This document shows, in pieces, positions 32,683 through 60,935 of a DNA stretch of 64,000 nucleotides. The translations under genes and the position numbers were made by a program. The notes below the pieces were generated by a model. That model searched no databases, was not told the origin of the DNA, and saw nothing but the letters and a program-made list of their open reading frames with translations. The stretch comes from Chondrosia reniformis (taxonomy: Eukaryota; Porifera; Demospongiae; Chondrillida; Chondrillidae): assembly GCA_947172415.1 (NCBI GenBank), contig OX359197.1, positions 2,914,001 to 2,978,000 of the forward strand, read 5' to 3'. Numbering within the stretch: position 1 is the stretch's first letter; each line of letters opens with the position of its first letter.

Positions 32683-32727
32683 ACCACAGACAGCTGTTTC
32701 GCCCTCATTTGGGCTCATCAGTGTGGT
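32683..32727 (-). ncRNA. Type I hammerhead ribozyme (family 1, minus)
   Basis: Minus-strand order: stem I ACCACA (32727-32722), CUGAUGA (32721-32715), stem II GCCC/GGGC with loop AAAUGA, GAAA (32700-32697), self-complementary stem III around CAGCUG, UC, cleavage expected after 32689, and the stem I partner UGUGGU (32688-32683). All invariant core bases are present and all stems pair perfectly. The very short palindromic stem III suggests activity as a dimer or in a concatemer. Confidence 0.9.
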
Positions 32728-33086
32728 ACACTTCAACGATGATGAGTTGGATGACCGTCTTCACTTATTAATCAGCCACAAGTGAAACACTTGTGGTTTT
32801 AAAATAAGCCAAGATGGAGGGCTGTAGTCTAAGCGAGGCCGAGCCCCCAGCCAAGATTAGACTTCGGTCACTTGGCTGGTTTGGCGTAATATCTCCCAGT
32901 GAATACTTTTGCTTATCATCCTAGCCTTTGCACAGCTCAGTGCAATTAACTCCCTTTTTCATTGTGAGCGCTCGGTCTCGCTTAGACTGCAACCCTCCAT
33001 CTTGGCTTATTTTGAAACCACAACTGTTTCACTTGTGGCTGATTAATAAGTGAAGACGGTCATCCAACTCACCATCATTGAAGTGT

Positions 33087-33131
33087 ACCACACTGACGAG
33101 CCCAAATGAGGGCGAAACAGCTGTCTGTGGT
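33087..33131 (+). ncRNA. Type I hammerhead ribozyme (family 1, plus)
   Basis: Same layout as the minus copy: ACCACA (33087-33092), CUGACGA (33093-33099), GCCC-AAAUGA-GGGC (33100-33113), GAAA (33114-33117), CAGCUG, UC with the cleavage site after 33125, and UGUGGU (33126-33131). The only core difference is C instead of U at position 7, which hammerheads tolerate. Confidence 0.88.
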
Positions 33132-33276
33132 TCTTTGATGAATGTTTTTCCATCTTGGATGACTGGGAGGCAATCACTGGTTGCCATTTTTAATAGGACT
33201 TCGGTCCCCCAGCCAAGATTAGACTTCGGTCACTTGGCTGGTTTGGCGTAATATCTTCAAGTGAAAACTTTTGCTT

Positions 33277-36200
33277 GTATGAACTAGTTGTATGTACTAC
33301 TTGTATGAACTAGTTGTTTTGTACTAGTACCAGTTATATTTAATAATTGCAGGTTGTAGTTTTCTGTGTACCAGATGTATGTACAAGTTACTAGGTATAT
33401 ATACAACTTGTATGAATTAGTTGTATGTACTTTTTGTATCTAGTATATAGTTTCATGTACAAGTTGTATGCACTAGTTGTATGTACTAGATATATATACT
33501 AGTCGTGTGTACTAGTTGTATGTGCTAGTTGTATGGACTAGTCGTATGTACTAGTTCAATGTATAAAATGCTTGAACTAGTTGTATGTACTACTCTATAT
33601 GTTCTAATTGTATGTAATTGTTGTATCGACTAGTTACTAATTGTATCATCTAGTTGTATGTAATAATTGTATTGTACTAGTAATACTTACAATTACTTGT
33701 TTTAGATACTTGTTGTATGTACTTGTTGTACGTACTAGTACTAGTTATATTTACTAGTTGTAGGTATTAGTTGCATGTATTAGTTGTATGACTTAGTTGT
33801 ATGTTCTAGTTGTGTATTTTAGTTGTAGTTACTACTTGTATGTACCAGTTGTGTACTAGTTGTATGTACTAGTAGAATGTACTAGTTGTATGAACTAGTT
33901 GTTTGGACTAGTTGTATGTACTTGTTGTATGTCCCCAGTTGTATGTACTTGTTACAAGTTGTATGTACAAGTTGAGTGTACTAGTTGTGTGTATTAGTTG
34001 TATATGCTTGTTAATATTTGTATGCACATGTTGTATGATACCTGTTTTGTGTACTAGTTGTATGAACTAGTTGTATGTATTTGTTGTGTGTACTAGTTGT
34101 ATATAGTAGTTGTATATATGTACTAGTCCTTTTTATTAGTTGTATGTACTAGTTTTATGTAGTAGTTGTAAGTACTAGTTACAAGATATATGGTCTAGTT
34201 GTATGTAGTGGTTGTATGTTCCAGTTGTATATAGTAGTTGTAAGTACTAGTTGTACGTAATATTTATAAGTACTAGTAATATGTAGTAGCTATATGTACT
34301 AGTTACTACTTGTATGGTCTACCTGTATGTACTAATTGTATATTCTAGATATATATAGTAGTTGTATGTACTAGTTGAATGTACTTTTTATATGTACTAG
34401 TTATATGAACTAGTTGTATATACAAGTTTTATGTACTCGTCACTGGTTGTATGTACAAGTTGTATTCCCTAGTTGTGTGTATTAGTTGTATGTACTCGTT
34501 ACTAGTTGTATATACATGTTGTATGGAATAGTTATGTGTACTAGTTCTATGAACCAATTGTATGTACTAAATTTTTGTACAAGTTGTAATTACTAGATGT
34601 TTGAACTAGTTGAATTTACTACTTATATGTTCTAGTTGTATATAGTAGTTGTAGGTACTTGGTCTATGTACTAGTACTTGTAAGTACAAGTTATTTGTAC
34701 CATGTATATGAACTAGTTGCATGTTCTAGTTGTATGAACTAGTTCTATGTATTCATTACTTGTTGCATGTACTAGTTGTTTATCCTAGTTGTATGTACTT
34801 ATTGTATGAACTAGTACTAGTTAAATTACTAGTGTTAGATACTAGTTGTATGGACCAGTTTTATGTACTAGTACCCGTTACATTTACTAGTTGTAGGTAT
34901 TAGTCGAATGTAGTATTTGTATGAACTAGTTGTTTGCATACTAGTACTAGATATATTTACTTGCTATAGGTACTAGTGGTATGTAACTGTCGTGTGTACT
35001 AGATGTATGCACTAGTAACTACTTATATGTTCCAGCTGTGTGTATTAGTTGTATATACTAGTTCTATGTAGTAGTTGTATGTATTTGTTGTATATACTAG
35101 TTGTATGTACTAGTTGTACATAGTAGTCGCATTTACTAGTTGTATAAACTAGTTTTATGTACTATATAGTTGTATGTATTAGTTGTAGTACTTGTGGTAT
35201 GTATTAGTTGTATTTATTAGTTGTTTGTACTAGTTGTATGTAGTAGTTGTAAGCACTAGGTTTATGTACTGTTTGCATGTACTCCTTGAATGTAGTAGTT
35301 GTATGTACTAGTTGTATGTACTCGTTACTAGATGTATCTACTAGTTAAATGTAATAGTTATATGTACTAGTTATTTGTACTAGTTGTATGTACTAGTTCT
35401 ATATACATGTTGTAGTCCTAGTTGCACGTAACAGTTTTATGTACTAGTTGTATGTATTAGTTGCATTGACTATTTCTATGTACTAGTTGCTGTACTACTT
35501 TAATGTACTAGTTGTATGTACAATTTTTATGTTCTAAATGTAGTACTAATTGTATGAAATATTTGTATTTAATATTTGTTTTGTATCAGTAGTAAATACT
35601 AGTTGTATGGACTAGTTGTATGAGCGAATTACTAGTTGTAGGACCTAGTTGTATGTACTAGTTGTAGTGCCAGTTGTATGTGGTAGTTGTTTTTACATGT
35701 TTTATGTACTAGGACTAGTTATATTTACTAGTTGTAAGTTGTACTTGTATGTAATAGTTGTATTTACTAGTTTTATGTACTAGGACTTGTTATATTTACT
35801 AGTTGTAGGTTCTACTGGTATGTAATAGTTGTATGTACTCTTTACTAGTTGTTGGTAGTGTTTGTATGTAATATTAGTATGTAATAGTTATATGGTCTAT
35901 TTGTTATTACTAGTTGTATGTACTAGTAATAGATATACTTACTAATTGTAGGTATTAGTTGTATGTACTAGTTGTATGTACTAGAACTAGTAATATTAGC
36001 TAGTTGTACGTAATAGTTGTAGATACTAGGTGTATGTTCTAGTTGTATGTACTAGTTGTGTGAACTACTTGTATTTACTAGTTGTATGTACTAATTGTAT
36101 GTATTAGTTTTATGAAGTAGTTTTATAAACTAATTGTATTTACTAATAATTGTTATATTTAATAGTTGTAGGAACTGCTTGTATGTACTAATTGTATATA

Positions 36201-36403
36201 CTAGTTGAATGTACTAGGTGTATGTACTAGTTTGATGTGTATGTGTTAGGTATGTTTCCTGGTTGTATGTACCGGTTATAAGTACTAGTTATATGTATTG
36301 GTTCTAAGTAATAGCTGTATGTACTAGTTATGTATATTAGTTGTAGGTGCTAGTTGTATATAATAATTGTACGTACCGTTACCAGTTGTATGTAAGAGTT
36401 GTA
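33277..36403 (-). repeat. 13-bp minisatellite, inverted orientation
   Basis: TGTATGTACTAGT variants, including the third copy of the roughly 400-bp higher-order unit (34690-35110). No gene. Confidence 0.92.
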
Positions 36404-37316
36404 CAGTGGAACCTCTGTTAATGGACCTTCCCAATAGCAAAAACCTCCACTGCAACAGCCCGGAAGTAAAGCAACGACTGAACTTCGTATAGCGGAAACC
36501 TCTCAGTTCCAACTTACCTCCTTTGCCAAAGTGTAAATTCTATTTCTATTTAATGGAAAAGGGATTTACAATTCGGACGTCATATATTGGGAATTAAACT
36601 GTTTGTCCAAGAATGCGAATTGTGAGTAGTATACACAATCTTTTGACACGTATTGATTTGACACCTCAGTAACTTTGTATACATATCCTGTACACCTAAG
36701 CATTCTTTTTACCACAAAGTTTACTTATACCCGAATTTCGACCAGATTCGAATCCAGTGATATTGTTAGGTAAGCAGCTGCCATCTACGGAGAGGAGGAG
36801 CATCTCGAAAAAGATAGATATGAACAGAATCGACAGAGAAAGGAAGGCTTCCAAAAGGACAAATAAGGAACTGTCGTTCTTAAATGTCCTTTAACAAGCT
36901 TTGTAAATGAGCACACACTTATAAAGAACTAAAATTATTTTGAAAAGTATCTTCTTCGAGATGCTCCTCCTGTCCATAGATGGCAGCTGCTTAACTATCA
37001 CTGGATTCGAAAGAATCCCAGCAGGACATCCAATACTTTTTGGAGAGCTATTCCCACTTTATTGAAGCAACTACTACCAGCAACCTTATTGATAGAGTTG
37101 CAATGTTGCATTCAGTTTGTGCCACACAGACTACTATAGATGATCATAATTAAGAATTATACTTACATGCGTGCATGTAAATATATATATGAAGTCTTAG
37201 TAATTATTTCTGTGTATAAACAAGAAATACGTAAAACCTCCCTTTAAAGAAAACCTCCTAAATAAAGGAAAAAGAAATTGTCCCAATGATGTTCGGTATT
37301 CGGAGGTTCCACCGTG
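36404..37316. mobile_element. Non-autonomous DNA-transposon-like element
   Basis: A 0.9-kb non-satellite insert with imperfect terminal inverted repeats. The left end is CAGTGGAACCTCTG; the right end on the other strand is CACGGTGGAACCTCCG. Such CAGTGGAACCTC ends are seen in pogo/Tigger-like Tc1-mariner relatives. No transposase reading frame was found and no clear TA duplication is visible, so the class is tentative. Confidence 0.6.
36747..37011. repeat. Nested foldback inside the DNA element
   Basis: ATTCGAATCCAGTGATATTG...CAGCTGCCATCTACGG...AGGAGGAGCATCTCGAA (36747-36810) recurs inverted at 36955-37011. Arms of about 60 bp enclose about 140 bp of AT-rich sequence. It is probably a second small foldback element inserted into the larger one. 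Confidence 0.65.
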
Positions 37317-40300
37317 TGTCCTAGTTGTATGTACTAGTTGTATGTACTAGTTGTATGTACTAGTTGTGTGCACTAGTTGTATGCACTAGTTGTATGTACT
37401 CGTTGTATATACAATTTATATGTACTTCTACTAGTTATATTTACTAGTCGTAGATACTAGTTGTATGGAAAAGTTGTGTGTACTAGATGTATGTACTAGT
37501 AACTAGTTATATATACTAGTTGTATTTCCAAGTTGTATATATTAGTTTTATGTACTAGTTGTATGTACTTGTTGTATATACTAGTTGCATGTACTAGTTG
37601 TATGTACTAGTTTTAAGTACTGGTTGTATGTACAACGAATAGTTATATTTACTAGTTGTAGGTACAAACTGTATGTAATAGTTGTATTTACTAATTCAAC
37701 TTATATATTGAATGTACTAGTTACTAGTTGTATGTAGTAGTTACTAGTTGTATGTACTTGTAATTGTTATATTTACTAATTGTAGGAACTAGTTGTATGT
37801 ACTAGTTGTAAGTATTAGATACATGTACTAGTTATATTTAGTAGTTGTAGGAACTAGTTGTATTTTCTAGTTGTATGTACTAGTTGTATGTACTTGTTGT
37901 ATGTACTAGTTTTATGTACTATTTACTAGTTGTAGGTACTAGTTGAATGTACCAGTTGTATATACCAGTAATTGTTATATTTACTAATCGTAGGAACTAG
38001 TTGTATGTACTAGTTGAAAGTACTAGTTTTATGTCCTAGCTGTATGTACGAGTTATAGGTACTAGTTGTAGTACCAGTTTAATGTACTAGGTGTAAGTAC
38101 TACTTGTATGTTCTAGTAGTATGAATCAGTTCGATGTATATGTACTAGTTATTGTTAGTTTTATATACCGGCTGAGTTCAATGTACCAATTGTATGTACA
38201 AGTTGTATGTACTAGTTGTATGTATTGGTCGAATGTAGTCATTACTAGTTTTATGGACTGGTTGTATGTTCTAGTTGAATGTTCTAGGTGTATGTACTAG
38301 TTTTGTGTACTAGTTGTATGTACTAGTTATATGTAATAGTTATATGTGTATGAAGTATTTGTGTGTACTAGTTGTAAATATATACTAGCTATGTACTACT
38401 TGTATGTACTAGTTGTATGTACTAGTTTAATGTACTAGTTCTATTTACTAATTTTGTGTACCAGTTTCTTGTTGTATGTACTAGTTGTATATAGTAGTTT
38501 TATGTACTCGTTCGATGTACTAGTTGTATGTACTATTTTCTAATTTTGTGTCCTAGTTGTATGTACTAGTCGTGTGTGCTAATTGTATGTACTACTTGTA
38601 GGTACTAGTGTATGTACTAGTTGTATGAACTATTTGTATGAACTAGTTGTATGAACTAGTTGTTGGTTCTTGTAGTAGTTATACTAGGTTCTAGGTAGGT
38701 AGTAGTTGTATGTACAAGATACTAGTTGTATTTACTAGTTGTGTGTACTAGTTGTATGTACAGTTATATGTGCAAGTTCTATGTACTAGCTGTGTGTAAA
38801 GGTTGTAAGTATTAGTTGTATGTACTAGTTATATGAACTACTTATATGTGTATGTACTGGTTATATGTTCAAGTTGTTTCTAAAAGTTGTACATACTAGT
38901 TGAATGTACACTAGTTGTATTTACAAGTTGTATGTACTAGTAGTATGTTCTAGTTGTATGTAGTAGTTATATGTACTAGTTATATGTTATAGGTGTGTGT
39001 ACTAGTTGTATGTACTAGTTATATGTACATGTTGTATATGTTAGTTATATGTAAAAGTTGTATGTATTGTATGTACTAGTTATATGTACTACTTATATGT
39101 GTGTGTACTGGTTATATGAACTAGTTGTGTGTAAAAGTTTAAAGTACTAGTTGAATGTTCACTAGTTGTATTTACTAGATGTATGTACTAGTAGTATGTT
39201 CTAGTTGTATGTACAATTTATATGTACTAGTTATACGTACTAGTTATATGTTTGTGTACTAGGTATATGAACTAGTTGCATGTAATAGTTATATGTACAA
39301 GTTGTATATACCAATTGTATGTACCAGTTCTTTAAACTATTTATATGTACTAGGTATATGAGTTTGTACTAGTTATATGTTCTAGTGGTATGTACTAGTT
39401 GTTTGTACTCCTTGTATGTACCACAAGTATGTTCCAGTTGTATGTACTATTTATATGTACTAGTTATAAATACTAGTTATGTGTACTAGCTTTATCTATT
39501 AGTTATATGTACCAGTTATATGTACTACTTTAATGTACTAGGTATGTGTCCTAGTTGAATGTACTAGTTGTATGGAATAGTTGCATGTACTCTTTATATG
39601 TACTAGTTATATGTGTGTGTACAAGGTATATGTACTAGTTGTATGTACTAGTTAATAGTAGTAGGTGGGTGTACTAGTTCTATGTACTAGTTGTATGTAC
39701 TAGTTGTATATACTAGTTGTAGGTTCTTGTACTAGTTAAACTAGGTAGTAGGTAGGTACTCGTTTTATGTACTAGTTACTAGATGTATATACTAGTTGCA
39801 TGTACAACTTTTATGTACTAGTTATGTGTAAAAGTTGTATGTATTGTATGTACTAGTTATATGTACTAGTTACATGTGCTTATACTGATTATATGTACTA
39901 GTTGTGTGTAAAAGGTGTATGTACTAGTTGTATGTACTAGTACTATGTTTTATTTGTTTGTATTATTTATATGTACTAGTTCTATGTACCAGGTATATGT
40001 ACTAATTGTTTGGACTTGTTATATGTACTAGTTATAAGTACTAGTTATATATACTAGTTGTATGCACTAACTGTATGTACTAGTTCTTTGATCTTTTTTA
40101 TGTACTAGGTATATGTGTATATACTAGATATATGTACTAACTGCATGTCCTAGGTTTAGGTTCTAGTACTAGTTATCGTAAGTACTAGGTAGGGACTAGT
40201 TGTATGTACAAGTTGTTTGTACTACTTGTATGTACCAGTTGTAGGAACCAGTTGTATGTACTAGAACTAGTTATATTTATTAGGTTTAGGTACTAGTTGA

Positions 40301-41729
40301 ATGTAGTATTTGTATGTAGTAGTTGTTTGTACTAATTTTTGTTCCAGTTGTATCTACTAGTTGTATGTACTAACTATGTACTAGTTGTATGTACTAGTTG
40401 TATGTACCAGTTTTATGAACTCGTTCTATATCCTAGTTTTATGTACTAGTCATATGTGTATCCACCCGTTATATGTACTAGTTGTGTGCTGTATGTGCAC
40501 TTGTTGTATTTATTAGTTGTATGTAATAGTACTATGTTCTAGTTGTATAAAATATTTATTTGTACTAGTTCTATGTAGTACTTATATATACCTGTTGTTT
40601 GTTCTAGTTATATTTAATAGTTTGAAGTACTAGTTTAATATTCTATTTTTATGACTAGCTATATGTTTGTGTACTAGGTATATGCACTAGTTGTACGTAC
40701 TTTTTGTATGTACTAGTTTTATGTACTAACTTTATGTACTAGTTTTATGATCTATTTATATGAACTAGATATAGGTGTATGTAATAGTTATATATACCAG
40801 CTGCATGTCCTAGTTTTAGGTACTAGGTAGAGACTAGTTGTATGTACTAGTTGTTTGAACTAGTTGTATGTACCAGTTGGAGGTACCAGTTGTATGTACT
40901 AGAACTATATTATTATATTATTATTGTGGGTACCAGTTGTATGTAGTAGTTGTTTGAACCAATTGTTTGTTCTAGTTGTATATACTAGTTGTATGTACTA
41001 GCTATGTACTAGTTGAATGTACTATTTGTATTGACCAGTTTTATTTACTCGTTCTATGTACTAGTTTTATTTGCATGTACTAGTGGTATGAATTAGGTTT
41101 ATGTACTAATTATATACACTAGTTATATGAGTATGTACTAGTTATATGCAGTATATAGGTGTGTGTACTAGGTATATGTACTAGTTGTATCTTCTAGTTC
41201 AATGTACTAGTTGTAGGTTCTTGTACTAGTAATACTGGGTATTAGGTAGGTACTCGTTGTTTGTACTAAATACTAGTTTTATGTACTAGTTGTGTGTACT
41301 AGTTGTATGTACTAGTTGTATGTACTAGTTGTTGTATTAGTTACTTTTTTAATTTACTAGTTGCATGTAATAGTTATATGTACTAGTTGTATGTACTAGT
41401 TGGGTGTAAAAGTTGCATGTACTAATTGTATGAACTAATTGTATGTAGTAGTTGTATGTACTAGTTATATGTACTAGTTCTATGTACCAGTTGTATGTAC
41501 TAGGTATATGAGTATGAACTGGTTATATGTCCTGGTTGTGTGTAAAAGTTGTAAGTACTAGCTGTATGTACACTAATGGTATTTTTCAGTTGTATGTACT
41601 AGTAGTAATTACTAATTGTATGTACTAGTTGTATGTACTAGCTATATGTACTAGTTGTGTGTACTATTTATATGTACTAGGTATATGTGTATGTACTAGT
41701 TGTATTTGCTAGCTTTATGTACTAGTTGT
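37317..41729 (-). repeat. 13-bp minisatellite, inverted orientation, 4.4 kb
   Basis: TGTATGTACTAGT variants. The roughly 195-bp stretch at 39705-39898 is almost identical to 42830-43025. Composite blocks lie near 38660, 39720, 40150 and 41215. No gene. Confidence 0.92.
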
Positions 41730-41905
41730 GAGGGAGCAGGGGAAACGGCGGAAATGACGGAAACGGCGGAAGTGGTAGAAAGCACGAAAATGGGCTTGTC
41801 TCAAAGCCACTATTAGGTGGAAATGCCTGCAGCTTTCTAACTAATAGCGCTGCAGTAGCTGCGATAGATGGAGCCTCTTAAAACCGTCCTCAAGAGCGAA
41901 CATCT
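41730..41905. other. Orphan non-satellite insert
   Basis: About 176 bp of GC-richer sequence interrupting the array. It begins with a short purine-rich repeat (ACGGCGGAAATGACGGAA and variants) and contains CTGCAG twice. No long reading frame, terminal repeats or match elsewhere in the window was seen. Confidence 0.6.
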
Positions 41906-49186: not shown

Positions 49187-49208
49187 GAGTTGTCCAAGCC
49201 AGATACTC

Positions 49209-49232
49209 CTTGCCTTAGTAAACTAAGGCAAG
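49209..49232 (+). other. 3' UTR hairpin of LINE copy 3
   Basis: CTTGCCTTAG / CTAAGGCAAG form a perfect 10-bp stem with loop TAAA, at the same place as in copy 2. Confidence 0.6.
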
Positions 49233-49269
49233 AAGTAACAAGGTTCTCCGTTAAGGCTTATGTTTCTCA

Positions 49270-50899
49270 AGTAGTTGTAGTACCAGTTTAACGTACTAGT
49301 TGTATGTATATACTAGTTTTAAGTAATAGTTCGATGTGTATGTACTAGTTATATTTACTAGTTGTATGTACTATTTATATAGACTAGTTAAATTTATATG
49401 TTCTATGTGATAGTTTTATGTACTAGTTATAATTACTAGTTGTTTGTAATAGTTGTATGTATTAGTTGTATGTAGTCGTTACTAGTTGTATGTAGTGGTT
49501 GTGTGTTTTAGTTGTATGCAGTGGTTATATGTTCTAGTTGTATGTACTGGTTATTTTTACTAGTTGTATGTACTAGTTGAAGGCACTGGTTGTATGTATT
49601 AGTTTTATGTACTATTTGTATGTACTAGTACTAGTTATATTTACTATTTCTAGGTACTAATTGTATGGAATAGTTGTGTATTCCAGATTTATGCACTAGT
49701 AACTAGTTATATGTACTAGTTACATGTACTAGTTGTATGTACTCGTTATTGGTTGTATGCACTCGTTACAAGTTGTATGTATTGATTGTAAGTCCCGGTT
49801 GTATGTACTAGCTTTGTGTAAAAGATATATGTACTCGTTCCTAGTTGTATGAACTAGTTTTATGTACTTGTTACTTCTTGTAAGTACTAGTTGTGTGTAC
49901 TAATTGTATGTAGTGTTTGTATTTACTAGTTACTACTTGTACGGTGCAGTTTATATACTAGTACTAGTTACAATTACCTGTTTTAGGTACTTGTTGTATG
50001 TACTAGTTTTATGTACTAGTACTAGTTATATTATTAGTTGCAGGTATAAGTTGTATGTATTAGTTTGTATGACTTAGTTGTATATTCTAGTTGGGCATTT
50101 TAATTGTATGTACTAGTTATATTCACTAGTTGTAGGTACTAGTTGTGTGTACTAATTGTATATATTAGTATTATGAACTAGTTGTGTGAACTAGTTGTAT
50201 GTACTAATAATTGTTATATTTACTATTTGTAGGAACTGGTTCTTTGTTCTAATTGTATATACTAGTTGAATGTACTAGGTGATTGTACTAGTTTGATGTG
50301 TATGTAGTAGTTATATTTCCTAGTTGTATGTACCAGTTAGATGTACTAGTTATATGTAATGGTTCTATGTAATAGTTGTATGTACTAGTTATGTTTACCA
50401 GTTGTAGGTGCCAGTTGTAGGTATTTTATGTGCCATAGCTAGTTGTATGTCCAAGTTGTGTGTTCTAGTTGTATTTACTAGTTGTATGTAATGGTTGTAT
50501 ATACTTGTTGTGTGTAATAGTTGTATGTACTGGTTGTATGTACTAGTTGTATGTACAATTTGTATGTATTACTACTAGTTTTATTTACTAGTCGTAGATA
50601 CTAGTTGTATGGAATAGTTTTGTGTACTAGATGTATGTACTAGTACCTAGTTATATGTAGCATTTGTATGTACCAGTTGTATATACTATTTGTATGTACT
50701 GGTAGTATTTACTAGTTGTATATACTGATTGTATGTACTAGTTGTATGTATTAGTTGCATGCACTCGTTATTAGTTGTATGATCTCATTACTAGTTGTAT
50801 GTACTGGTATTTTCTAGCTAAATGCACTAGTTGTTTGTAGGAGATGTATCTACTCGTTGCTAGTTGTATGTACTAGTGGTATGTACTAGTTGTATGTTC
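49270..50899 (-). repeat. 13-bp minisatellite, inverted orientation, to the switch point
   Basis: TGTATGTACTAGT variants up to TTGTATGTTCA, where unit orientation reverses to AGTAGTACATCCAC without intervening sequence. Confidence 0.9.
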
Positions 50900-50933
50900 A
50901 AGTAGTACATCCACCTAGTTCATTCAACTAGTA
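50900..50933 (+). repeat. Short + oriented satellite after the switch
   Basis: About 34 bp of + oriented units (CTAGTTCATTCAACTAGTA) between the orientation switch and the orphan insert. Confidence 0.75.
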
Positions 50934-51198
50934 TCGACTCTTGTTGGCCGTCAATTTTTCAAGGCCATATCTCGTAGAAAACGTTTTTGCGCAAGCTTTA
51001 CGTTACATAGTATTAGTAAGGGTGGTTTTTAAGTCCAGTTTGTTCATTCACTGTTTTACGCTAAGGAAGAGAAAGCTAATTTTAAGCTAGAAAACGAAAG
51101 CTAGCCGAACGTCCGCCATTTTTTACAAGACTACGAACAGGAAGCCATGCATTAACATAATTGATGAAAACATTATAGGGGTGTCTCCGGTGCCCCAA
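50934..51198. other. Orphan 265-bp insert near the satellite switch
   Basis: Unique sequence from TCGACTCTTGTTGGCC to GTGTCTCCGGTGCCCCAA, flanked by CAACTAGTA on both sides (50925-50933, 51199-51207). Since that is also satellite sequence, it is weak evidence for a duplication. AT-rich middle with GCTAATTTTAAGCTAG and GAAAGCTAGC; no coding frame or known motif recognised. Confidence 0.6.
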
Positions 51199-51589
51199 CA
51201 ACTAGTACATACAATTAATATAACCATTAGTTCATAGAACTAGTACAAACAACTAGAACAACTAGTACATACAACTAGTACATAGAACTAGTATCAACCT
51301 AGCACCTAGTATAACTAGTACTAGAACCTACAACTAGTACATAGAGGTAGGACATCCAGCTAGTTCACATAACTAGTACATATACTACTAGTACCTTTAC
51401 CTAGTACATAGACATATAACTAGTACATATAAATAGTACATAAAAATAGTACTTACAACTATTACAAAGAATTAGTAGATACAACTAGTACCTACCTAGC
51501 ACCTAGTATAACTAGAACTAGAACCTACTACAAGTACATAGAGCTATTACATACAGCTAGTTCAAATAACTAGTATATATACCTAGAAC
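51199..51589 (+). repeat. 13-bp minisatellite, + orientation
   Basis: ACTAGTACATACA variants with two composite blocks (about 51290 and 51490). The last 13 bases, ATATACCTAGAAC (51577-51589), are duplicated at 54625-54637. Confidence 0.9.
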
Positions 51590-52003
51590 GAAATGATAGG
51601 GGGTAATTTTAGTTGCGTTCATTATGAAAGATAAGTTTATTGGAGCTATCAGCAACAAAATTGAGCTAGATTGAACGTTTCGACCTGTAGGTCTTCATCA
51701 GCAGTAATGAGGAATAGGATTACAGAGTTGGTTTAAATAGAGGAAAGGTGACAGGAGTTGAAAAATTGAATAAGATAAAATAATTAAAGTAGAATAAAAA
51801 AAAAATAAAAAAAAATCTTGTCAAATGAAAAATCAATTGTTAGTGTTAATTGAAGGTATAATGTCATTCCAGATGGGGTCAAGTGACATGCCTTGGTCCA
51901 GGTTCATGCATCTGCTGGTTTATATGTACATTGCTTCTTTGATCTTTCTTCTTGTCTTGTGTTGTTCTCTCTGGAGTACCTCAGCATTTTCCCATTTGAT
52001 GAT
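51590..52003 (-). repeat. Inverted terminal module of the PLE
   Basis: 51626-52003 is the reverse complement of about 54242-54624, including the end of the GIY-YIG coding part and the tail hairpin. 51590-51625 is the reverse complement of about 52041-52078. It amounts to an inverted tail-to-head junction of a tandem PLE. It yields an open frame on the plus strand that is not a gene. Confidence 0.85.
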
Positions 52004-52117
52004 ATTTTGTTGCTGATAGCTCCAATAAACTTATCTTTCATAAGGAACGCAACTAAAATTACCCCCTATCATTTCATCAAAAGATCAGAGCAAGCTACAA
52101 TTTCAACCATCTACAAA

Positions 52118-54417
52118 ATGAGGAATATTACAGGTAGGATTGCAAGGAACAAGAACCATCTCATTTTCTTAGCCAGATGCAAGAAACATAACCTCATTCC
52201 AAGGGGACTGAGAGTGACTCTACCAATAAAGACCACAAGAGCAGCATCTCAAGCAATAAAGACAAGTTATGTACTACTTGGAGAATGTACCAAAATGGCA
52301 TGCCGGAAGGAGATTCACCTCCAAAGAGAAAGACAGCAACTACATCCAAAGGTATTGCTAGTCCTGGATCAAGAGGAGTTCAGACAAATGGAGAAATGGA
52401 TTAATGAATATGAAGAAAGATGCTACCATGAATGCCGAGAAAAACAACTAAAGAAGTTTGACACTCTCATCCTTGAAAGCCAGCAGCAGTTGGCTACCAA
52501 GAAGTTGGTGAAGAACTACAGTTCCAGACAACTGGACAAAATTGAAGAAGAAGTGCTGGCCCTGGGACTGAATTTTGCCATTACTCCCAAAGCTATACCA
52601 ACTCAAGAAATTGTGACAAGAACAGAAGCAATTTCCAGAACAATGAATGCCAACCAAGCACAAGACTTAAAGAGTAGGGTGAAGTGGTGCCTCAAGCACT
52701 GTAAACAGCCAAAAACCAACTTAACTAGACAACAGATGAAAGCCATACAAAGACTGAAAGGAGACGAAACAATAAAGATCTTACCAGCTGACAAAGGGAG
52801 GACAACAGTCATCTTGGACAGTACTGAATATCACCAGAAAATGGAAGGTTTGTTGCAGGATGGAACATACAAGAAGTTGAAGAATGACCCAACTCTGAAG
52901 ATCACCAAGGGACTGAACCAGATGCTGAGAAAACTAGAAGACAAACACCTGATGGACAGGAACACAAGATTGAAACTAGCACCTTCACAGAATCGCCCAC
53001 CTCAAATGTATGGCCTCCCAAAGATTCACAAGCCAGACAGACCAATGAGACCAATTGTGTCATCTATTGGATCACCAACATACTAACTGGCCAAAGAACT
53101 GACACGGATCCTTTCCCCACTTGTGGGTAACAGTCCACACCACATAACTAACTCATCTCAATTTGCTCAACTCATTGCAGGTACATCAGTTGGAGAAAGT
53201 GACAAAATGGTCAGTTTTGATGTCAAGAGCCTCTTCACGAAAGTACCAGTGAAAGAAGCAGTGTCGAGGATATCCTCCCTCCTGGACAGAGACACCACAT
53301 TGGGGGAAAGAACCAACCTACCACCAAGAGTCATAATTGAAATGATAGAAAAAGTTCTTTCAACGAACTACTTCCAACTAGGAACAGACTTTTATGAACA
53401 GACAGAAGGGGCAGCAATGGGTTCCCCCCTCTCCCCAGTTCTAGCCAACCTATATATGGATTTTTTTGAGGAAATGGCCATTGATACAGCCACACACAAG
53501 CCAACACTTTGGATATGGTACGTAGACGACACTTTTGTTATTTGGACACATGGTGACAGTGAACTACAAGCCTTCCTTGGACACCTCAATTCACTGAGAG
53601 AATCCATACAGTTCACCATGGAAGAGGAGGAACAAGGACAGCTACCATTCTTGGATGTCCTCGTCAAGAGGAAAGGAAGCAACCTAACCACAAGTGTCTA
53701 CAGGAAACCGACCTCCACTGACGGCTATCTCAATTACCAGTCTAACCACCACCCAGCCATCAAACTCGGGACAATCACCTGTCTGAGGAAGAGAGCACAC
53801 AACATATGTTCACAAGAGAACCTACAGGAGGAACTACAACATCTACAGAGTGTCTTCAAAAAGAATGGCTACCCTAGGACCATCATCCAGAGAGTTCTGA
53901 GGAAACAGAAAAGCACACAAGCAGACCCAAGTAATGAGGATAAGAAGATTCTGAGCCTACCATACATCAGAGGTCTCAGTGAGAATCTACAGAGAACCTG
54001 TAGACCCCAGTCACAGTAGTGCACAAGTCCAACAGCACACTCAGGTGCATCCTAATGAAGGTCAAGACACCAATCAGCAGAGACCAAGCCAAGGGAGTCA
54101 TTTACAGGATCCCATGCGAATGTTGCCAAGAGTACATTGGAGAAACATCAAAAAGTATTCATGAAAGAATAGCTGAACATAGGAGATCAGTAAGGAGAGG
54201 CGACACAAACAACTCAATAGCTGTACATGTTCAAACAACAGACCATATCATCAAATGAGAAAATGCTGAGGTACTCCAGAGAGAACAACACAAGACAAGA
54301 AGAAAGATCAAAGAAGCAATGTACATACAAACCAGCAGATGCATGAACCTGGACCAAGGCATGTCACTTGACCCCATCTGGAATGACATTATACCTTCAA
54401 TTAACACTAACAATTGA
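52118..54417 (+). pseudogene. PLE polyprotein (RT + GIY-YIG), three lesions
   Basis: The first ATG after the inverted module is 52118. One frame runs to 54019 with a single TAA at 53084-53086 (after SPTY). N-terminal region: basic, with KHNLIPRGLRV and a Glu-rich helical part. RT motifs: LGLNFAITPKAIP, LPADKGRTTVIL, YGLPKIHKP, RPIVSSIGSPTY, FDVKSLFTKVPV (motif A), GAAMGSPLSPVLANLYMD (motif B), YVDDTFVIW (motif C, 53519-53530), FLDVLV and SVYRKPTSTDGYLNY. A frameshift near 54017 leads to GIY-YIG: GVIYRIPCECCQEYIGETSKS, ERIAEHRRSVRRGDTNN and HVQTTDH, with the PLE Cys/His pattern. A TGA at 54256-54258 replaces what should be Trp, and the end is TGA 54415-54417. It acts in target-primed reverse transcription. 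It is the least damaged PLE here. Confidence 0.92.
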
Positions 54418-54624
54418 TTTTTCATTTGACAAGATTTTTTTTTATTTATTTTTTATTCTACTTTAATTATTTTATCTTATTCAATTTTTCAACTCCTGTC
54501 ACCTTTCCTCTATTTAAACCAACTCTGTAATCCTATTCCTCATTACTGCTGATGAAGACCTACGGGTCGAAACGTTCAATCTAGCTCAATTTTGTTGCTG
54601 ATAGCTCCAATAAACTTATCTTTC
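54418..54624 (+). other. PLE 3' tail with hammerhead-like hairpin
   Basis: T-rich stretch, TATTTAAACC, then CTGATGA (54549-54555), a GACC-TACG-GGTC stem and GAAACG (54569 on). It ends CAATAAACTTATCTTTC, which contains AATAAA. The core is hammerhead-like, but there is an extra A before stem II and no matching stem I or cleavage site. Confidence 0.6.
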
Positions 54625-55082
54625 ATATACCTAGAACATACAATTAGAACATATAACTAGTACATACAACTAGTAACTGGTATATACAACTAGTACATTC
54701 AACTTGTATATACAATTAATACATACAACTATTAATGAGCACATGCAACTAGTACATTCAACAAGTACATACAACTAGTACATAAAACTATGACATACAA
54801 CTAGTACATACAACAAGTACTTATAACTAGAACATACAAATAGCATATACAACTAGTACATACAACTAGAACATACAATTAGTAACTACAACTAGGAAAT
54901 ATAACTAGTACTTTCAACAATTATATACACCTAGTACATACAGCTACTCCCTACAACTAGTAAATATAACAAGTACTAGTTCATACAACTAGTACGTGCA
55001 ACAAGTACATAAAACCAGTACATACAACTTACATACAACTAATATTACCACTAGTACATATAGAATATATAGAATACATAGA
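54625..55082 (+). repeat. 13-bp minisatellite, + orientation
   Basis: ACTAGTACATACA variants beginning with the right copy of the PLE target-site duplication. No gene. Confidence 0.9.
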
Positions 55083-56329
55083 AGTCTGTCAGGATAAAGC
55101 CTTTTGGTCTAACAATGTCTCCAATAAAGCAGTCACAGCTGTTCATTTAGTAGAGCTCTTTAACTACCTTATTGACAACATTTATGTATGTGTAGATGGT
55201 TCTGTATTTAAGCAAGGTGTAGGTATTCCTATGGGTACTGACTGTGCCCCTGTAGTTGCTAATCTTTTTCTGTTTGCCTATGAGTATGAGTTTATGAAAG
55301 GACTACTTAAGGATAACATCACCTTAGCTATTAAATTTTCCAATACTTATAGGTATATTGATGACCTTTTATGTATTAACAACAAGGATTTTGAACTGTC
55401 AATTAGTGATATTTATCCCAAAGATCTTATTCTTAAAAAGACAAATACCAGCCCTTGGAAAACCCCCTTTTTAGACTTAGATATAACCATTACTAACAAT
55501 CAATTTATCACTAAAGTATATGATAAGCGAGAGGACTTTAACTTTGATATAGCAAATTTCCCCCATTAAGATAGTAATATTCCTAATACCCCAGCCTATG
55601 GTGTCTTTATTTCACCACTAATTAGGTATTCCAGAATATGTAGTGACTTCTCCAGTTTTCGGTTTAAAAGTTTGCATTTATGCAGTAGGCTTATTAAACA
55701 GGGTTACAAATACTTTAAGCTAAAATCAACCTTTAAAACCTTCCTATCCCGGCAGCCTCTAGTTAGAATCAAGTATAAGCAAAAAGTAGTTAGTATGCTT
55801 AAAGGCTATCTTGTATTACCCCACCTCCAAAGAAATGTTACTACTAGAAGACCTAAAGGTAGACTTATGTAATATGTCCTACTTGTGTCAATAGTTATGC
55901 TGAGTCTGTTTTACCTATAAGCAAGATTACTAATAGATTTATAATTAATTCATAAAATTAATTAGACCTACATTCCTTTCATAAAATTAAATTTCATCAT
56001 GTGTCTTAGTTAACAGCTTATTTAACTTTTGGCGCCAAAATAGTGTCTATAAGGCCCCTAGATTTAGCATAGAGAGCCAAGGATTCACAGAAGATCAAGA
56101 TAAAGAAAAAGACAAAGACTCCCAGGATCACTGATGAAGGGGGGAATTCCCAGAAATGGCCGGCTGACCCAGTGGAGAAGAAGATGAAAGAAGGGAAAAG
56201 AAGAGGGAAAAGAAGGAAGAAAAGACTCCTGTATCTTCATCTAAAGCTCTCTTTAGGTTTAGTCACTTATAGGCTCTTTTTACAGAATAGCCATATAGCA
56301 CGTAGGAAAATGGTATATTAGATTTTTCA
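55083..56329 (+). mobile_element. 5'-truncated PLE of a second family (possibly Naiad-like)
   Basis: RT fragment (55083-55872) followed by about 450 bp of AT-rich tail. The tail carries GGCGCCAAAA, TCAAGATAAAGAAAAAG and CTGATGAAG...CCCAGAAATGG. The tail alone occurs inverted at 2731-2970; the RT alone occurs inverted at 20626-21106. The 3' end lies at about 56329, before CATACAACTAG. Confidence 0.75.
55090..55872 (+). pseudogene. PLE-type RT, C-terminal half
   Basis: Starts inside the RT: CQDKAFWSNNVSNKAVTAVH, LFNYLIDNIYVCVDGS, GIPMGTDCAPVVANLF (motif B), KFSNTYRYIDDLLCINN (YIDD codons 55354-55365), DIYPKDLILKKTNTS and FLDLDITI. Then KVYDKREDFNFDIANFPH, one TAA (55567-55569), SNIPNTPAYGVFISPLIRYSR, SRLIKQGYKYFKL and a basic C-terminus ending at 55870. 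Unlike the other PLE here, no GIY-YIG follows the RT. That is compatible with the permuted Naiad/Chlamys type, whose nuclease is N-terminal, but the N-terminus is missing, so this cannot be tested here. Confidence 0.75.
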
Positions 56330-56837
56330 TACAACTAGTACATACAACTAGAACATACAACTAGTAGATACAACTAGTTACCTACAACTAGTATATACAA
56401 CTAGTAACTACAACTAGTAAATATAACTAATACTTCAACAATTACATACACCTAGTACATACACCTTGTACCTACAACTAGTAAATGTAACTTGTACTTT
56501 CGACAAATACATACACCTATATAGTATATGCAACTAGTACATACAACTAGTACATATAACTAGTACATACACATATAACAAATACATATAAATAGTAACA
56601 TACAAATATACATATAACTACTCCATACAACTAGAACATATGACTAGTATATACAAGTGGTACATACAAATTGGAAACACAACTAGTACACACAACTACT
56701 ACCTACAAGTAGTATATACAACTAGTACATGCAATTAGTAACTACAACTAGTAAATATAACTAGTAAATATAACTAGTACTTTCAACAATTACATACACC
56801 TCTTATATACAACTATACATATAACTTCTACATACAA
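56330..56837 (+). repeat. 13-bp minisatellite, + orientation
   Basis: ACTAGTACATACA variants ending in TTCTACATACAA (56826-56837), the left copy of a 12-bp duplication. Confidence 0.9.
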
Positions 56838-56991
56838 TAATGGAATAAGGATTTCTTCTAACTGCGACAAACTTATCTTTGTAAAGGTTCATCTTTCGAC
56901 TTTTAGAGCGTCTAGAGACCCAGTTTTTTCCGATTCTTCTGTCTTCCAAACGTTTCGACCCTGGGGGTCTTCTTCAGTCACTTTACAAAGA
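56838..56991 (-). mobile_element. 154-bp solo PLE terminus with own TSD
   Basis: Flanked by perfect 12-bp repeats TTCTACATACAA (56826-56837, 56992-57003). Contents: inverted 5' start (TAATGGAATAAGG...), inverted tail (minus-strand CTGAAGAAGACCC...GGGTCGAAACG), and a direct tail end (TTTACAAAGA). This is the same terminal module as the left end of the 111-4536 element, but alone and bounded by its own duplication. It has no coding capacity. Confidence 0.85.
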
Positions 56992-59454
56992 TTCTACATA
57001 CAACCATAACATACAACAAGTACACACAAGTGGTAGATACAACTAGGACACACAAATACACAAACAACTGCTACCTACAACTAGTAAATATACCAAGTAC
57101 TATTACATAAAACTAGTTCAGACAACTAGTAGATATAACTGGTACTTTCAACTAGTACATAGAACAAGTACATAAAATGGGTTTATATAACTAGTTCATA
57201 CAACTAGTACATACAACTAGTACATAAAATTAGTACCTACAACTAGTACATACAACTAATTTACACAACTGGTACATACAATTAGTACATACATCTAGGT
57301 ACTAGGTACTACCTAATACCTAGTATATATAACTACTACTAGAACCTACAGCTTGTACTTATAACTGGTACATTCAACTAGTACATACAACTAGTACATA
57401 CAAGTAGTACATGAACTAGTACATACAACTAGTACATACAACTAGTACATGCAACTAGTACATACAACTAGTACATACAACTAGTACACACATGTAGTTA
57501 ATACAACTAGTTCACACAACTAGTACAAACAACTAGTACTCTCAGCTAGTACAAAAAGGTAATGCAAACAACTAGTACCTATCTAGTACTAGTTTAACTA
57601 GTACAAGAACCTACAACTAGTACCCACAACTAGTACATTTACCTAGTACATATAACTAGTTCATACAACTAGTACATACAACTAGTACATAAAATTAGTA
57701 CCTACAACTAGTACATACAACTAATTTACACAACTGGTACATACAATTAGTACATACATCTAGGTACTAGGTACTACCTAACTCCTAGTATATATAACTG
57801 CTACTAGAACCTACAGTTTGTACTTATAACTGTTACATTCAACTAGTACATACAACTAGTACATACAACTAGTACATACAACTAGTACATATAAGTAGTA
57901 CATGCAACTAGAACACCCAACTTGTACGTAAAAATAGTTCATACAACTAGTACATAAAACTAGGACATACAACTAGTACATACAACCAGTACATACAACT
58001 AGTACATACAACTAGTACATACAAGTAGTACATGCAGCTAGAACATGCAACTTGTACGTAAAAATAGTTCATACAACTAGTACACACAATTAGGACAAAT
58101 AGCTAGTAAATACAACTAGTACATATAACTAGAACATTCAATTTGTACTTAAACCTAGTAGTTACACATATATCTAGTATATATAAATAGTACATACAAC
58201 TAGTACAAACAACTAGTACATACAACTAGTACACAAAACTAGTACCTGCAACTAGTACACAAAACTAGTACAGATAACTAGTACATATAACTAGTTGTTA
58301 TAACTAGTACATAAAACTAGCATCTAGTACAAACAACTAGAACCTTCCTAGTACCTAGTATAACTAGTACTAGAACATACAACTAGTGCATACAACTACT
58401 ACATACAATTAGTACATACAACTAGTACATTAAACTTGTACCTACCTAATACCTAGTATAACTAGTACTAGAACCTACACCCTTTAAATATAACTTGTAC
58501 ATACAACCAGTACATGCAACTAGTACATATAACTAGTACCTACAACTAGTACATAAAATTAGTACATGCAACTAGTACATATAACTAGTTGACACCATTA
58601 CTACATATAACTTGTACTTACATGTATAACTAGTACATACATATAGTACATACAAGTGGTACTTACAGCTAGTACTTACAACTAGTACACACAATTAGTA
58701 CATACACCTAATTCACACATATAATACATACAATTAGTACCTACAATTAGATACTAGAACATACACCTAGGACATACAAATAATACATACAACTAGTACA
58801 TTCAACTAGTACCTACCTAATACCTAGTATATATAACTAGTAGTAGAACCTACAGCTTGTACTTATAACTGGTACATTCAACTAGTACATATACCTAGTA
58901 TATACACATTTAACTAGTACATATAAATAGTACATACAACTAGTCCATAAAACTAAAACATACAACTAGTACATACCACTAGTACATACAAGGAGTACAT
59001 ACCACTAGTACATACAAGGAGTACATGCAACTAGTAAACACAACTTGTGTGAACAACTAGTTAATACTAGTACATACAATTAGTACACACAATTAGTACA
59101 AACAGCTAGTAAATACAACTATTTCATATAACTAGAACATTCAACTAGTACTTATACCTATTACATATACATATAACTTGTACATATAAATAGAACTTAC
59201 AACTAGTCCATACAACTAGAACATACAACTAGTATATACAACTAATACATACTAGTAGTCCATACAACTAGGACACACAACTAGTGCATTCACCTAGTAA
59301 ATACAACTAGTACAAACAGCTAGTACATACAACTAGTACCTACCTAGTACCTAGTTTTACTACTACTAGAACCTACAACTAGCACATACAATTAGTACCT
59401 AAAACTAGTACATACAACTAGTACACAAAACTATTACACACAACTACAAAACTA
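56992..59454 (+). repeat. 13-bp minisatellite, + orientation
   Basis: ACTAGTACATACA variants. The stretches at about 57185-57400 and 57650-57865 are near-identical copies 465 bp apart. Composite blocks near 57300, 57580, 57780, 58335, 58450, 58820 and 59340. No gene. Confidence 0.92.
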
Positions 59455-59862
59455 GTAAAGGGATTCCGAGGAGTCTCAGCAACACAATTTTATTATCAAA
59501 TTTGAACGTTTCCACCCGAAGGTCTTCATCTACAAACCAGGTTTAAATTGGGAAGGTGACAAAGAATGAGTAATGATGTAATGCCACATAATGAATAGAA
59601 GTAAATTACTGTGTTAGTTAATAATGTCATTCGAAATTGGATCTAAATGTAAACCTGAATCCATTTTAATACAGGGAGTCTTCTAAATCAGTATTGCTTC
59701 TTTAATCTTTCTCTTTAGTCTGAGGGTCTCCTGGGTTATAATGGTTGCTTGGTCCCATGCGATGTCATGTGCAGTATTCATGATATAAACAGCTATAGAA
59801 TTGTCTGTGTCCATTCTACATACAGACCTCTTGTGTACCTTCACTATGTAACTATGTAACTA
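59455..59862 (-). pseudogene. PLE GIY-YIG C-terminus and tail
   Basis: The minus strand reads VHKRSVCRMDTDNSIAVYIM, then NTAHDIAWDQATIITQETL and RLKRKIKEAI, the second half of a PLE GIY-YIG nuclease. This is followed by a tail with GATGAAGACC...GGGTGGAAACGTTC and TTGTGTTGCTGAGACTCC, related to the tail at 54540-54620. RT and the GIY half are missing. A stop interrupts the helix after KEAILI. It looks like a 5'-truncated insertion of a relative of the 51590 element. Confidence 0.75.
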
Positions 59863-60329
59863 GAAAGTAGTACATACAACTTGTATATAGCACGAGTACA
59901 TAAAAGTGGTATATACAACTACTACATAAACAAGAAACTAGTACATATAAGTATTATATAGCTAGTACATACAATTATTATATACATACAACTAGTACAT
60001 ATAACTAGTACATACAAATAGTATATACAATGAGTACATACAACTACTACATCCAACTACTACATACGACCAGTACCTACAACTAGTAAATATAACTAGT
60101 ACTTGTACCTACAATTAGTACATTAAACTAGTAAATACAACTAGTATATATATACAACTAGTACATACAACTAGTACAAAAATTAGTACGTACAACTTGT
60201 TCATACAACTAGTAACTAGTACATATAACTAGTACATGCAACTAGTACATACAACTAGAGCATACAACTAGTACATACAACTAGTTCATAAAACTAGTAC
60301 ATGCAACTAGTATATACAACTAGTACATA
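59863..60329 (+). repeat. 13-bp minisatellite, + orientation
   Basis: ACTAGTACATACA variants. The last eight bases AGTACATA (60322-60329) recur at 61076-61083, flanking the next element. Confidence 0.9.
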
Positions 60330-60498
60330 TAAGATCTAAAGCTGATCTTAAAGCATCGATGTCATCATCATCATTTAACTCTGGGTATTACCCCTGCCCA
60401 CTCATGTCCCCTGAGGAGCGCAATGAGCTAATGGGCGGAACCGAAGTTCGCTTGATGGGAACCAGAGTCTCCCACTAGCCACTCAAAAAGATGGTCAA

Positions 60499-60543
60499 GC
60501 CATAGACAGCTGTTTCGTCCTTATTAGGACTCATCAGTATTGC
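60499..60543 (-). ncRNA. Type I hammerhead ribozyme (family 2, minus)
   Basis: Minus-strand order: GCAAUA (60543-60538), CUGAUGA (60537-60531), GUCC-UAAUAA-GGAC (60530-60517), GAAA (60516-60513), CAGCUG, UC with cleavage expected after 60505, UAUGGC (60504-60499). The core is complete. Stem I has one A-G mismatch relative to the plus-strand copy, so it may be weaker. Confidence 0.82.
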
Positions 60544-60890
60544 ATACAATGGAAGTTAGAGTGGCTAGTCTGCTAATAAGTACTCCAAGAAGCTAAAAAG
60601 CTTGTGGTTTCCTTATCAGCAGATAAGGGATACAGCCAAAAGTGTGGCTGACCACTAGTAAGGAAAAAATAGGGGAACTTTAAGATCTAAAGCTGATCTT
60701 AAAGCATCGATGTCATCGTCACCATTTAACTCTGGGTATTACCCCTGCCCCCCTATTTCCCCTATTCTTTTCATACTAGTGGTCAGCCACACTTTTGGCT
60801 GTATCCCTTATCTGCTGATAAGGAAACCACAAACTTTTTAGCTTCTGGGAGTACTTATTAGCAGACTTGCCACTCTAACTTTCATCGTAT

Positions 60891-60935
60891 GCCATACTGA
60901 TGAGTCCTAATAAGGACGAAACAGCTGTCTATGGC
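60891..60935 (+). ncRNA. Type I hammerhead ribozyme (family 2, plus)
   Basis: GCCAUA (60891-60896), CUGAUGA (60897-60903), GUCC-UAAUAA-GGAC (60904-60917), GAAA (60918-60921), CAGCUG (60922-60927), UC (cleavage after 60929), UAUGGC (60930-60935). Six perfect stem I pairs, four stem II pairs, and the self-complementary stem III ACAGCUGU. It has every conserved core base. Confidence 0.92.

What the first reader, a model, noticed from the sequence alone, without database searches (positions are those of the whole stretch)
32683..60935. Four complete hammerhead ribozymes in two families with compensatory stem changes
Ribozymes at 32683-32727 (-), 33087-33131 (+), 60499-60543 (-) and 60891-60935 (+) are all exactly 45 nt with the same spacing. 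Between families stem I changes from ACCACA/UGUGGU to GCCAUA/UAUGGC and stem II from GCCC/GGGC to GUCC/GGAC. Pairing is kept, and CUGANGA, GAAA and the palindrome ACAGCUGU are unchanged. Covariation of this kind is strong evidence for selected RNA folding. The loop-less self-complementary stem III implies dimeric cleavage, as in other short animal type I hammerheads.
Basis: partly seen in the sequence, partly recalled or inferred. Interest (0 to 1): 0.9.

Follow-up and report, generated by a model that had tools for sequence, protein, structure and literature searches.

The report
Ribozyme repeats inserted by Penelope-like retrotransposons
Two short, protein-less mobile DNA elements in a sponge genome carry self-cutting RNA motifs, and the way their copies sit in the DNA bears the insertion fingerprint of Penelope-like jumping genes, which gives sequence evidence on an open question: what moves such ribozyme repeats in animals.

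Summary
The window is chromosome 9 of the sponge Chondrosia reniformis. The four type I hammerheads are where stated, but one (60499-60543, -) has an A-G mismatch and misses Rfam's cut-off. Each -/+ pair is the two arms of one head-to-head element, A (32490-33276) and B (60330-61075), whose monomers (362, 351 nt) are alike only over the ribozyme. Stem covariation, about fivefold conservation and a predicted dimeric fold support working ribozymes. That is the signature of Penelope-like elements (PLEs), also shown by a PLE in this window. Best reading: retrozyme-like, ORF-less passengers of PLE machinery. That PLEs move retrozymes is a published hypothesis; insertion-level evidence for it was not found in the papers searched. 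Which PLE is open; a test for circular templates was negative.

The parts
32490..33276 (.). Element A: head-to-head pair of ORF-less hammerhead repeat units
   Evidence: inverted arms 32538-32849/32965-33276, 94%; unit map; 12-bp direct repeat TTGTATGAACTA at both borders, inside satellite and so weak alone
32490..32844 (-). A, minus arm, long 3' end ('tail' present) near 32490
32844..33276 (+). A, plus arm, 433 nt = 1.2 monomers, short 3' end at 33276
32683..32727 (-). Hammerhead type I, 34.6 bits; predicted cut 32688/32689
33087..33131 (+). Hammerhead type I, 36.6 bits; predicted cut 33125/33126; helix I extends outward past an internal loop UGU/U
32919..32967 (+). A tail region between the two 3' ends; hairpin UUGCAC-AGCUCA-GUGCAA
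   Evidence: fold -7.1 kcal/mol, z -1.0, not exceptional; ends
60330..61075 (.). Element B: head-to-head pair of ORF-less hammerhead repeat units
   Evidence: inverted arms 60359-60677/60757-61075, 95%; 9-bp direct repeat TAGTACATA at the borders, inside satellite
60330..60763 (-). B, minus arm, 434 nt; 3' end in the tail hairpin (classed long)
60757..61075 (+). B, plus arm, short 3' end
60499..60543 (-). Hammerhead copy with A-G mismatch in stem I, 29.8 bits (below gathering 34)
   Evidence: predicted dimer loses stem I
60891..60935 (+). Hammerhead type I, 37.1 bits; predicted cut 60929/60930
60659..60713 (-). B tail region; hairpin CUUUAAGAUC-AGCUUUA-GAUCUUAAAG followed by UUCCCCUAU
   Evidence: fold -12.4 kcal/mol, z -4.5; similar to the 3' region of the permuted PLE, 0 of 400 shuffles
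51590..54627 (+). Poseidon-like PLE (RT, then a GIY-YIG-like region) with inverted 5' pLTR, long end at 51590 and short end near 54627
   Evidence: RVT_1 E 1.5e-9; ends; GIY-YIG read by eye, no Pfam hit for 54004-54255; 'Poseidon-like' is recalled from the domain order
55051..56332 (+). 5'-truncated relative of a ~997-aa PLE with GIY-YIG upstream of RT
   Evidence: RT by similarity to the 997-aa frames, weak RVT_1 E 0.0023; domain order; 3' ends of two other copies L098, L099
56125..56170 (+). Hammerhead-like motif (family C), stem III degraded
   Evidence: no Rfam match up to E 5
2880..2925 (-). Hammerhead-like motif (family C) in a C copy at 2725-2973
   Evidence: below Rfam gathering

Best explanation
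A and B are ORF-less retrozyme-like retroelements with type I hammerheads, inserted by the machinery of Penelope-like elements. Proposed cycle: tandem units are transcribed; two hammerheads pair through their self-complementary stem III and can cut as dimers (inferred); the template that is copied is intact across the cut, i.e. an uncut multimer or a religated circle (shown that it crosses the cut, not which); the PLE endonuclease opens both target strands a few bases apart and reverse transcription starts on both, on one strand from the site before a hairpin and on the other from the site after it (end positions shown, mechanism inferred from published PLE work); the two cDNAs grow towards each other and are joined at variable points, leaving a head-to-head element with one short and one long 3' end and a target duplication of roughly 9-14 bp.
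For: Elements with both outward ends classified: 14 of 14 (A) and 14 of 15 (B) have one short and one long end; without two satellite-duplicated B relatives 26 of 27. From hammerheads alone: 11 of 11 opposite-strand neighbours within 2 kb are - then +, among the first 100 of 185 places. Direct repeats of 8 bp or more in 13 of 21 off-satellite elements, against 1.7% of 420 mispaired controls. Inner junctions differ between copies. Same ends in the Poseidon-like PLE: 31 short, 22 long, 4 other of 57 scored matches. Published PLE anatomy and two RT start sites: PMC3846280 (passages), PMC11167929 (main text). B tail similar to the permuted PLE's 3' region (0 of 400 shuffles). Tandem arrays at 352-363 bp. 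No RT at A/B in 74 partly overlapping loci, except one PLE fragment about 700 bp from an A element.
Against: The driver is unresolved: the insertion anatomy matches the Poseidon-like PLE, while the ribozyme palindrome and the B tail match the permuted PLE, whose own copies show one main end and no inverted arms that I could see. A's tail has no significant similarity to the others and its hairpin is not unusually stable. One element with two long ends (L033) and six two-armed elements with an unclassified end; the class limits were set after looking at the ends, and B's 'long' class is wide, 165-204. Eight of 21 off-satellite elements gave no repeat of 8 bp. The Poseidon-like PLE has 2 short/short pairs. 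No RNA data.
Confidence: 0.77

Rival explanations
1. A and B are solo pLTRs: leftovers of autonomous PLE families whose ORF-bearing copies are extinct or were not sampled, rather than independent non-autonomous elements.
For: The Poseidon-like PLE in this genome leaves inverted pLTR pairs without room for an ORF, of the same layout; the Anolis PLE carries a hammerhead at its pLTR-ORF junction (PMC11167929).
Against: No RT at A/B in 74 partly overlapping loci apart from one fragment about 700 bp away; multi-unit tandem arrays; A and B share nothing but the ribozyme. Only part of the copies was fetched.
Confidence: 0.17
2. Fold-back or MITE-like DNA transposons that happen to carry old hammerheads.
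For: Inverted arms and target duplications.
Against: Arm lengths and inner junctions differ from copy to copy while only the 3' ends are fixed; the two ends of one element differ; 40 of 80 arms are longer than one monomer.
Confidence: 0.03
3. Ordinary metazoan retrozymes mobilised by a LINE through circular RNA.
For: Size, tandem arrays, type I hammerhead, GC 45-46%, no ORF (PMC7229834); 63 of 80 arms cross the cleavage junction.
Against: Two-site 3' ends and inverted pairing are PLE traits; the full-turn test for a circular template was negative (p 0.69). LINE ends in this genome were not examined.
Confidence: 0.06
4. Satellite DNA spread by unequal exchange, not transposition.
For: Window B and six relatives of similar full length at 90-91% identity look duplicated with the satellite; L058 and L059 share flanks.
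Against: Copies with distinct junctions and distinct target duplications outside satellite on several chromosomes; A elements inserted into family C copies (L008, L015).
Confidence: 0.02

Closest known systems
Metazoan non-LTR retrozymes (Cervera and de la Pena 2020, PMC7229834; parts 1, 2 and 4 of 6 read, passages of the rest)
   Same: Type I hammerhead, monomers within 170-400 nt (axolotl 330-353, mussel 350-390), no ORF, tandem arrays, GC below 50% (0.46 and 0.45 here), target duplications longer than 4 bp; a weak stem III that favours dimers is described for axolotl. Helix I here continues past a conserved internal loop U[A/G]U/U, where loop 1 of canonical motifs lies (recall).
   Different: Two-armed copies are head-to-head, with two fixed 3' ends; the word 'inverted' does not occur in the held main text of that paper. 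Expression and circles untested here.
Penelope-like elements with pLTRs and 'tail' (PMC3846280, passages; PMC11167929, main text)
   Same: Head-to-head inverted pLTR, a 30-50 nt tail on one end, target duplications (8-10 bp in the passages read), hammerhead upstream of the RT start sites.
   Different: No ORF; units of 351-362 nt; ribozyme cut to 3' ends about 150-200 nt; tail on exactly one end in nearly every classified element, where the papers call it optional.
Small PLE-associated hammerheads acting as dimers (Lunse et al. 2017; not read, known through a review passage)
   Same: Stem III without a loop.
   Different: Sequences not compared; the A/B motifs have an extended helix I.

Membership tests
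Type I hammerhead ribozyme (RF00163) | Covariance-model match at gathering score | tested here: met
   3 of 4 motifs; the fourth 29.8 bits against 34
Type I hammerhead ribozyme (RF00163) | Stem pairing kept by compensatory change | tested here: met
   3 pairs with change on both sides, 44 such cells against 16.5 in shuffles; few independent events, and copies pre-selected for pairing
Type I hammerhead ribozyme (RF00163) | Self-cleavage after NUH | not testable with these tools
   sequence has GUC; dimeric fold predicted
Metazoan retrozyme | ORF-less short tandem repeats with type I hammerhead | tested here: met
   same-strand neighbours at 352-363 bp; no ORF of 150 aa in A or B; no adjacent RT
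Metazoan retrozyme | Hammerhead with loop 1-loop 2 contacts | tested here: inconclusive
   internal loop in helix I conserved (U at +1 in 53 of 53, UAU or UGU in 46 of 53 distinct copies; outer pairs 138 of 159, 61% when rows are mispaired); the contact itself cannot be tested
Metazoan retrozyme | Circular RNA intermediates | tested here: inconclusive
   indirect full-turn test negative; no RNA data
PLE insertion product | Head-to-head units with outward 3' ends | tested here: met
   11 of 11 opposite-strand pairs are -+
PLE insertion product | Tail on one of the inverted ends | tested here: met
   28 of 29 elements with both ends classified
PLE insertion product | Target duplications of variable length, about 8-10 bp in the passages read | tested here: met
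   13 of 21 off-satellite at 8 bp or more, matched length 9-14, which may include a few terminal bases of the element
PLE (autonomous) | Encodes RT and GIY-YIG | tested here: not met
   no ORF of 150 aa in A or B, no RT similarity; hence passenger, not PLE

The most novel reading that the evidence does not exclude
The short/long pairing is a strict rule: a PLE enzyme always primes one target strand at the site before the tail hairpin and the other at the site after it, so the 'optional tail' of PLEs is in fact a marker of which strand was primed, and ribozyme repeats with no other shared sequence have each evolved the same two-site hairpin signal to be copied in trans. Animal retrozymes, at least of this kind, would then be passengers of PLEs.
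Probability: 0.45. Interest if true: 0.72.

Novelty: new variant of a known kind. Interest (0 to 1): 0.55.

Why it matters
The literature names PLEs as 'strong' or 'likely' candidates to move animal retrozymes (PMC7229834; PMC7761336, passages); in the parts I read the reasons given are shared ribozymes, tandem copies and co-occurrence, not insertion anatomy. Here two repeat families that share only a ribozyme carry the PLE insertion fingerprint, next to PLEs with the same fingerprint. [quoted passage not shown]

Tried and rejected
Circular template: arm lengths were tested for an excess near whole turns; 20 of 80 arms against 21.0 when inner ends are shuffled (p 0.69) and 14.7 for uniform ends (p 0.09); not supported. 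Inner ends at the ribozyme cut: 2 of 80 within 10 nt, 4.7 expected, so the copied RNA was not a cut linear monomer. Same-molecule test: opposite arms of one element are closer to each other than to an average copy (median 1.9% against 7.1% in A, 2.4% against 5.7% in B) but as a rule not closer than the nearest other copies, so uninformative. A universal 'CAT' at the ends: 38 of 79 ends against 14 of 79 flank windows, an enrichment, not a rule. Tail similarity: A to B, to the Poseidon-like PLE or to C not significant; B to the Poseidon-like PLE 22 of 400; only B to C stands out. I first took the A/B hammerheads for minimal ones; flanks show an extended helix I, so that claim was dropped. MITE and satellite accounts: see rivals. 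Weak plant-microRNA and virus stem-loop matches of Rfam in element B lie in the inverted repeat and below gathering; treated as chance. One search failed through a miscounted pattern and was redone.

Rows dropped before counts: loci that overlap or duplicate others, 14; two of 38 motifs before (one spurious, one degenerate); L092-L094, and L092 and L093, as satellite-duplicated relatives of window B; L006 (element at the edge of the locus); segments under 85% identity, under 80%; copies without intact ACAGCUGU. B loci were mostly fetched by their hammerhead, so B conservation (15 of 1530 against 371 of 10179) is biased; A loci were fetched by whole-element similarity. Lists were cut by the tool, and one search scored 40 of 418 candidates; counts from them are samples or lower bounds.
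Full report
Setting. The window lies in a 117,379,552-base genome of 15 contigs, C9:2914001-2978000. Size, 14 chromosomes and the chromosome lengths seen here agree with Table 3 of the Chondrosia reniformis genome note (PMC12181767, passages), so the window is chromosome 9 of that sponge. Much of it is a diverged 13-bp satellite, TACTAGTTGTATG, with retroelement remains.

The observation. The four motifs are present. Rfam's type I model accepts three; the fourth has an A-G mismatch in stem I and 29.8 bits. Genome-wide the same model scored 73 candidates, 51 over the cut-off, a capped sample, and none over the cut-off in 14 control genomes. On 36 distinct A/B-type copies three pairs change on both sides; 44 cells do so against 16.5 in shuffles and at most 3 in slid structures, while the count of such pairs is not above shuffles: real covariation, few independent events, in copies that had been picked with a minimum of pairing. 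In 78 whole or partial family A units fetched by whole-element similarity, the 45-nt ribozyme departs from consensus at 18 of 1832 sites against 709 of 14669 in the rest; stem III at 0 of 336. Two RNA strands of A+, A-, B+ or C are predicted to form the double hammerhead as their best dimer, while a single strand prefers a fold that pairs the core CUG with CAG; the mismatched B copy loses stem I in the dimer. Cleavage as dimers is therefore likely and unmeasured here. Outside the 45 nt, helix I goes on past an internal loop U[A/G]U/U with three further pairs (138 of 159 cells; 61% when rows are mispaired), so these need not be minimal hammerheads.

What the units are. Each pair is one element: a minus-strand unit followed by a plus-strand unit. 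Taking the ribozyme cut as position 1, the monomers are 362 nt (A) and 351 nt (B) and resemble each other only over the ribozyme (34-39 nt at 85%; otherwise a 10-nt match of chance level). Related copies are spread over many chromosomes; a strict A/B-type pattern finds 185, a looser one with the same stem III finds 1072, their reversed controls 0. Some loci are tandem arrays. Among the first 100 of 185 places, 23 neighbour pairs lie within 2 kb: 11 are - then +, 12 same-strand (11 at 352-363 bp, one at 281 bp), none + then -.

The ends. Outward 3' ends fall at about 148-160 (short) and 194-202 (long) in A and about 140-155 and 174-202 in B; the class limits were set after looking at them. Of 35 two-armed elements, 29 have both ends classified; 28 have one short and one long, one has two long, none has two short; six have an unclassified end. 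Two of the B elements are satellite-duplicated relatives of the window's; without them it is 26 of 27. Another 24 elements or fragments have one arm only. The stretch between the two ends folds into a hairpin, strong in B (z -4.5) and ordinary in A (z -1.0). Inner junctions vary from copy to copy, often with overlaps of a few bases. Of 21 two-armed elements outside satellite, 13 carry exact direct repeats of 8 bp or more at the borders; mispaired flanks do so in 1.7% of 420. Two of the eight without (L019, L046) seem by eye to have one outside the frame searched.

What makes such ends. In Adineta vaga, typical Penelope copies end in an adjacent inverted pLTR, with an optional 31-bp tail at the 3' end of one inverted pLTR and duplications of 8-10 bp; other copies there have direct pLTRs only or no duplication (PMC3846280, passages). 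A PLE from Anolis cuts and extends both target strands and starts reverse transcription at two internal sites, and the tail is the sequence between them; its RT start sites did not differ between top and bottom strand in vitro, which does not by itself predict a strict one-of-each rule (PMC11167929, main text). The Poseidon-like PLE at 51590-54627 of this window behaves alike: of 57 matches to its pLTR 31 end at the short and 22 at the long site, 4 elsewhere; among head-to-head pairs with both ends classified 15 are short/long and 2 short/short, three have an unclassified end, and seven of the 15 share nearly one inner junction and may be a single event. Its borders repeat ATATACCTAGAAC, read by eye, inside satellite.

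Which PLE. A second PLE family has open frames of up to 997-1010 aa; in nine loci a GIY-YIG match (weak, about 25.7 bits, over the cut-off of 22.6) and the RT match about 1.8 kb further on lie in one such frame, the permuted order, and many RT copies are 95-96% identical to the query. That this order is called Naiad is recall. Two copies end in a 3' region with a hammerhead-like motif (family C) about 155 nt before the end TTTTTCAT, next to satellite. B's tail resembles this region (0 of 400 shuffles), A's does not. Of the C copies, 19 matches end at positions 451-457 of the query and I saw no second end cluster and no inverted arms. So the anatomy points to the Poseidon-like type, and the ribozyme palindrome and B tail to the permuted type; the driver is open. 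Family C in 50800-61200 is not matched by Rfam up to E 5; its stem II usually starts with an A-A mismatch.

The template. Of 80 arms, 63 cross the ribozyme cut and 40 exceed one monomer; inner ends do not gather at the cut (2 within 10 nt, 4.7 expected). The copied RNA was thus an uncut multimer or a closed circle. A test for whole turns of a circle was negative.

Membership. They are type I hammerheads by Rfam. They meet the structural retrozyme features that could be tested; circles and loop contacts could not be settled. They meet the PLE insertion features but encode nothing. I file them as retrozyme-like passengers with PLE insertion anatomy: a new variant of a known kind. Searches for prior description (listings complete except 15 of 88 and 20 of 40) showed no paper whose title or start of abstract reports PLE-type ends for ORF-less hammerhead repeats; the library lacks most subscription papers, and the two key PLE-hammerhead papers (2014, 2017) were not read.

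Noticed in passing
window 15000-45000 and 54000-64000: A diverged 13-bp satellite (TACTAGTTGTATG) fills much of the window; its strand flips near 52 kb, seen as a sign change of GC and AT skew.
   Followed up: no
window 51678-51701 (-), 54549-54572 (+), 4437-4460 (+), 7382-7406 (+), 56953-56977 (-): A recurrent hammerhead-like motif CTGANGA-A-GACC..GGTC-GAAACG, two of them in the pLTRs of the Poseidon-like PLE, with one base more than a hammerhead core allows; no Rfam match for the three in 50800-61200. It may be a degenerate or unusual PLE ribozyme.
   Followed up: partly
C10:2894525-2894999, C2:5755149-5755623, C7:3936283-3936756, C11:3100681-3101154, C11:3102131-3102596, C3:2874329-2874806, C8:2873585-2874050: Seven inverted pLTR pairs of the Poseidon-like PLE without an ORF that share nearly one inner junction (query 117-122 / 221-228), as if this fold-back form itself multiplied.
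   Followed up: no
L008 1265-2483 and L015 957-1874: Two A elements, in opposite orientation of short and long ends, inserted at nearly the same place of family C copies, with 13-14 bp duplications: a hint of target preference.
   Followed up: partly
C8 and C12, six places of about 740 bp: Six full-length relatives of window element B at 90-91% identity, apparently carried along by satellite duplication (two fetched: L092, L093).
   Followed up: partly
window 7809-11242: LINE-like ORFs with endonuclease- and RT-like sequence, read by eye from the ORF list.
   Followed up: no
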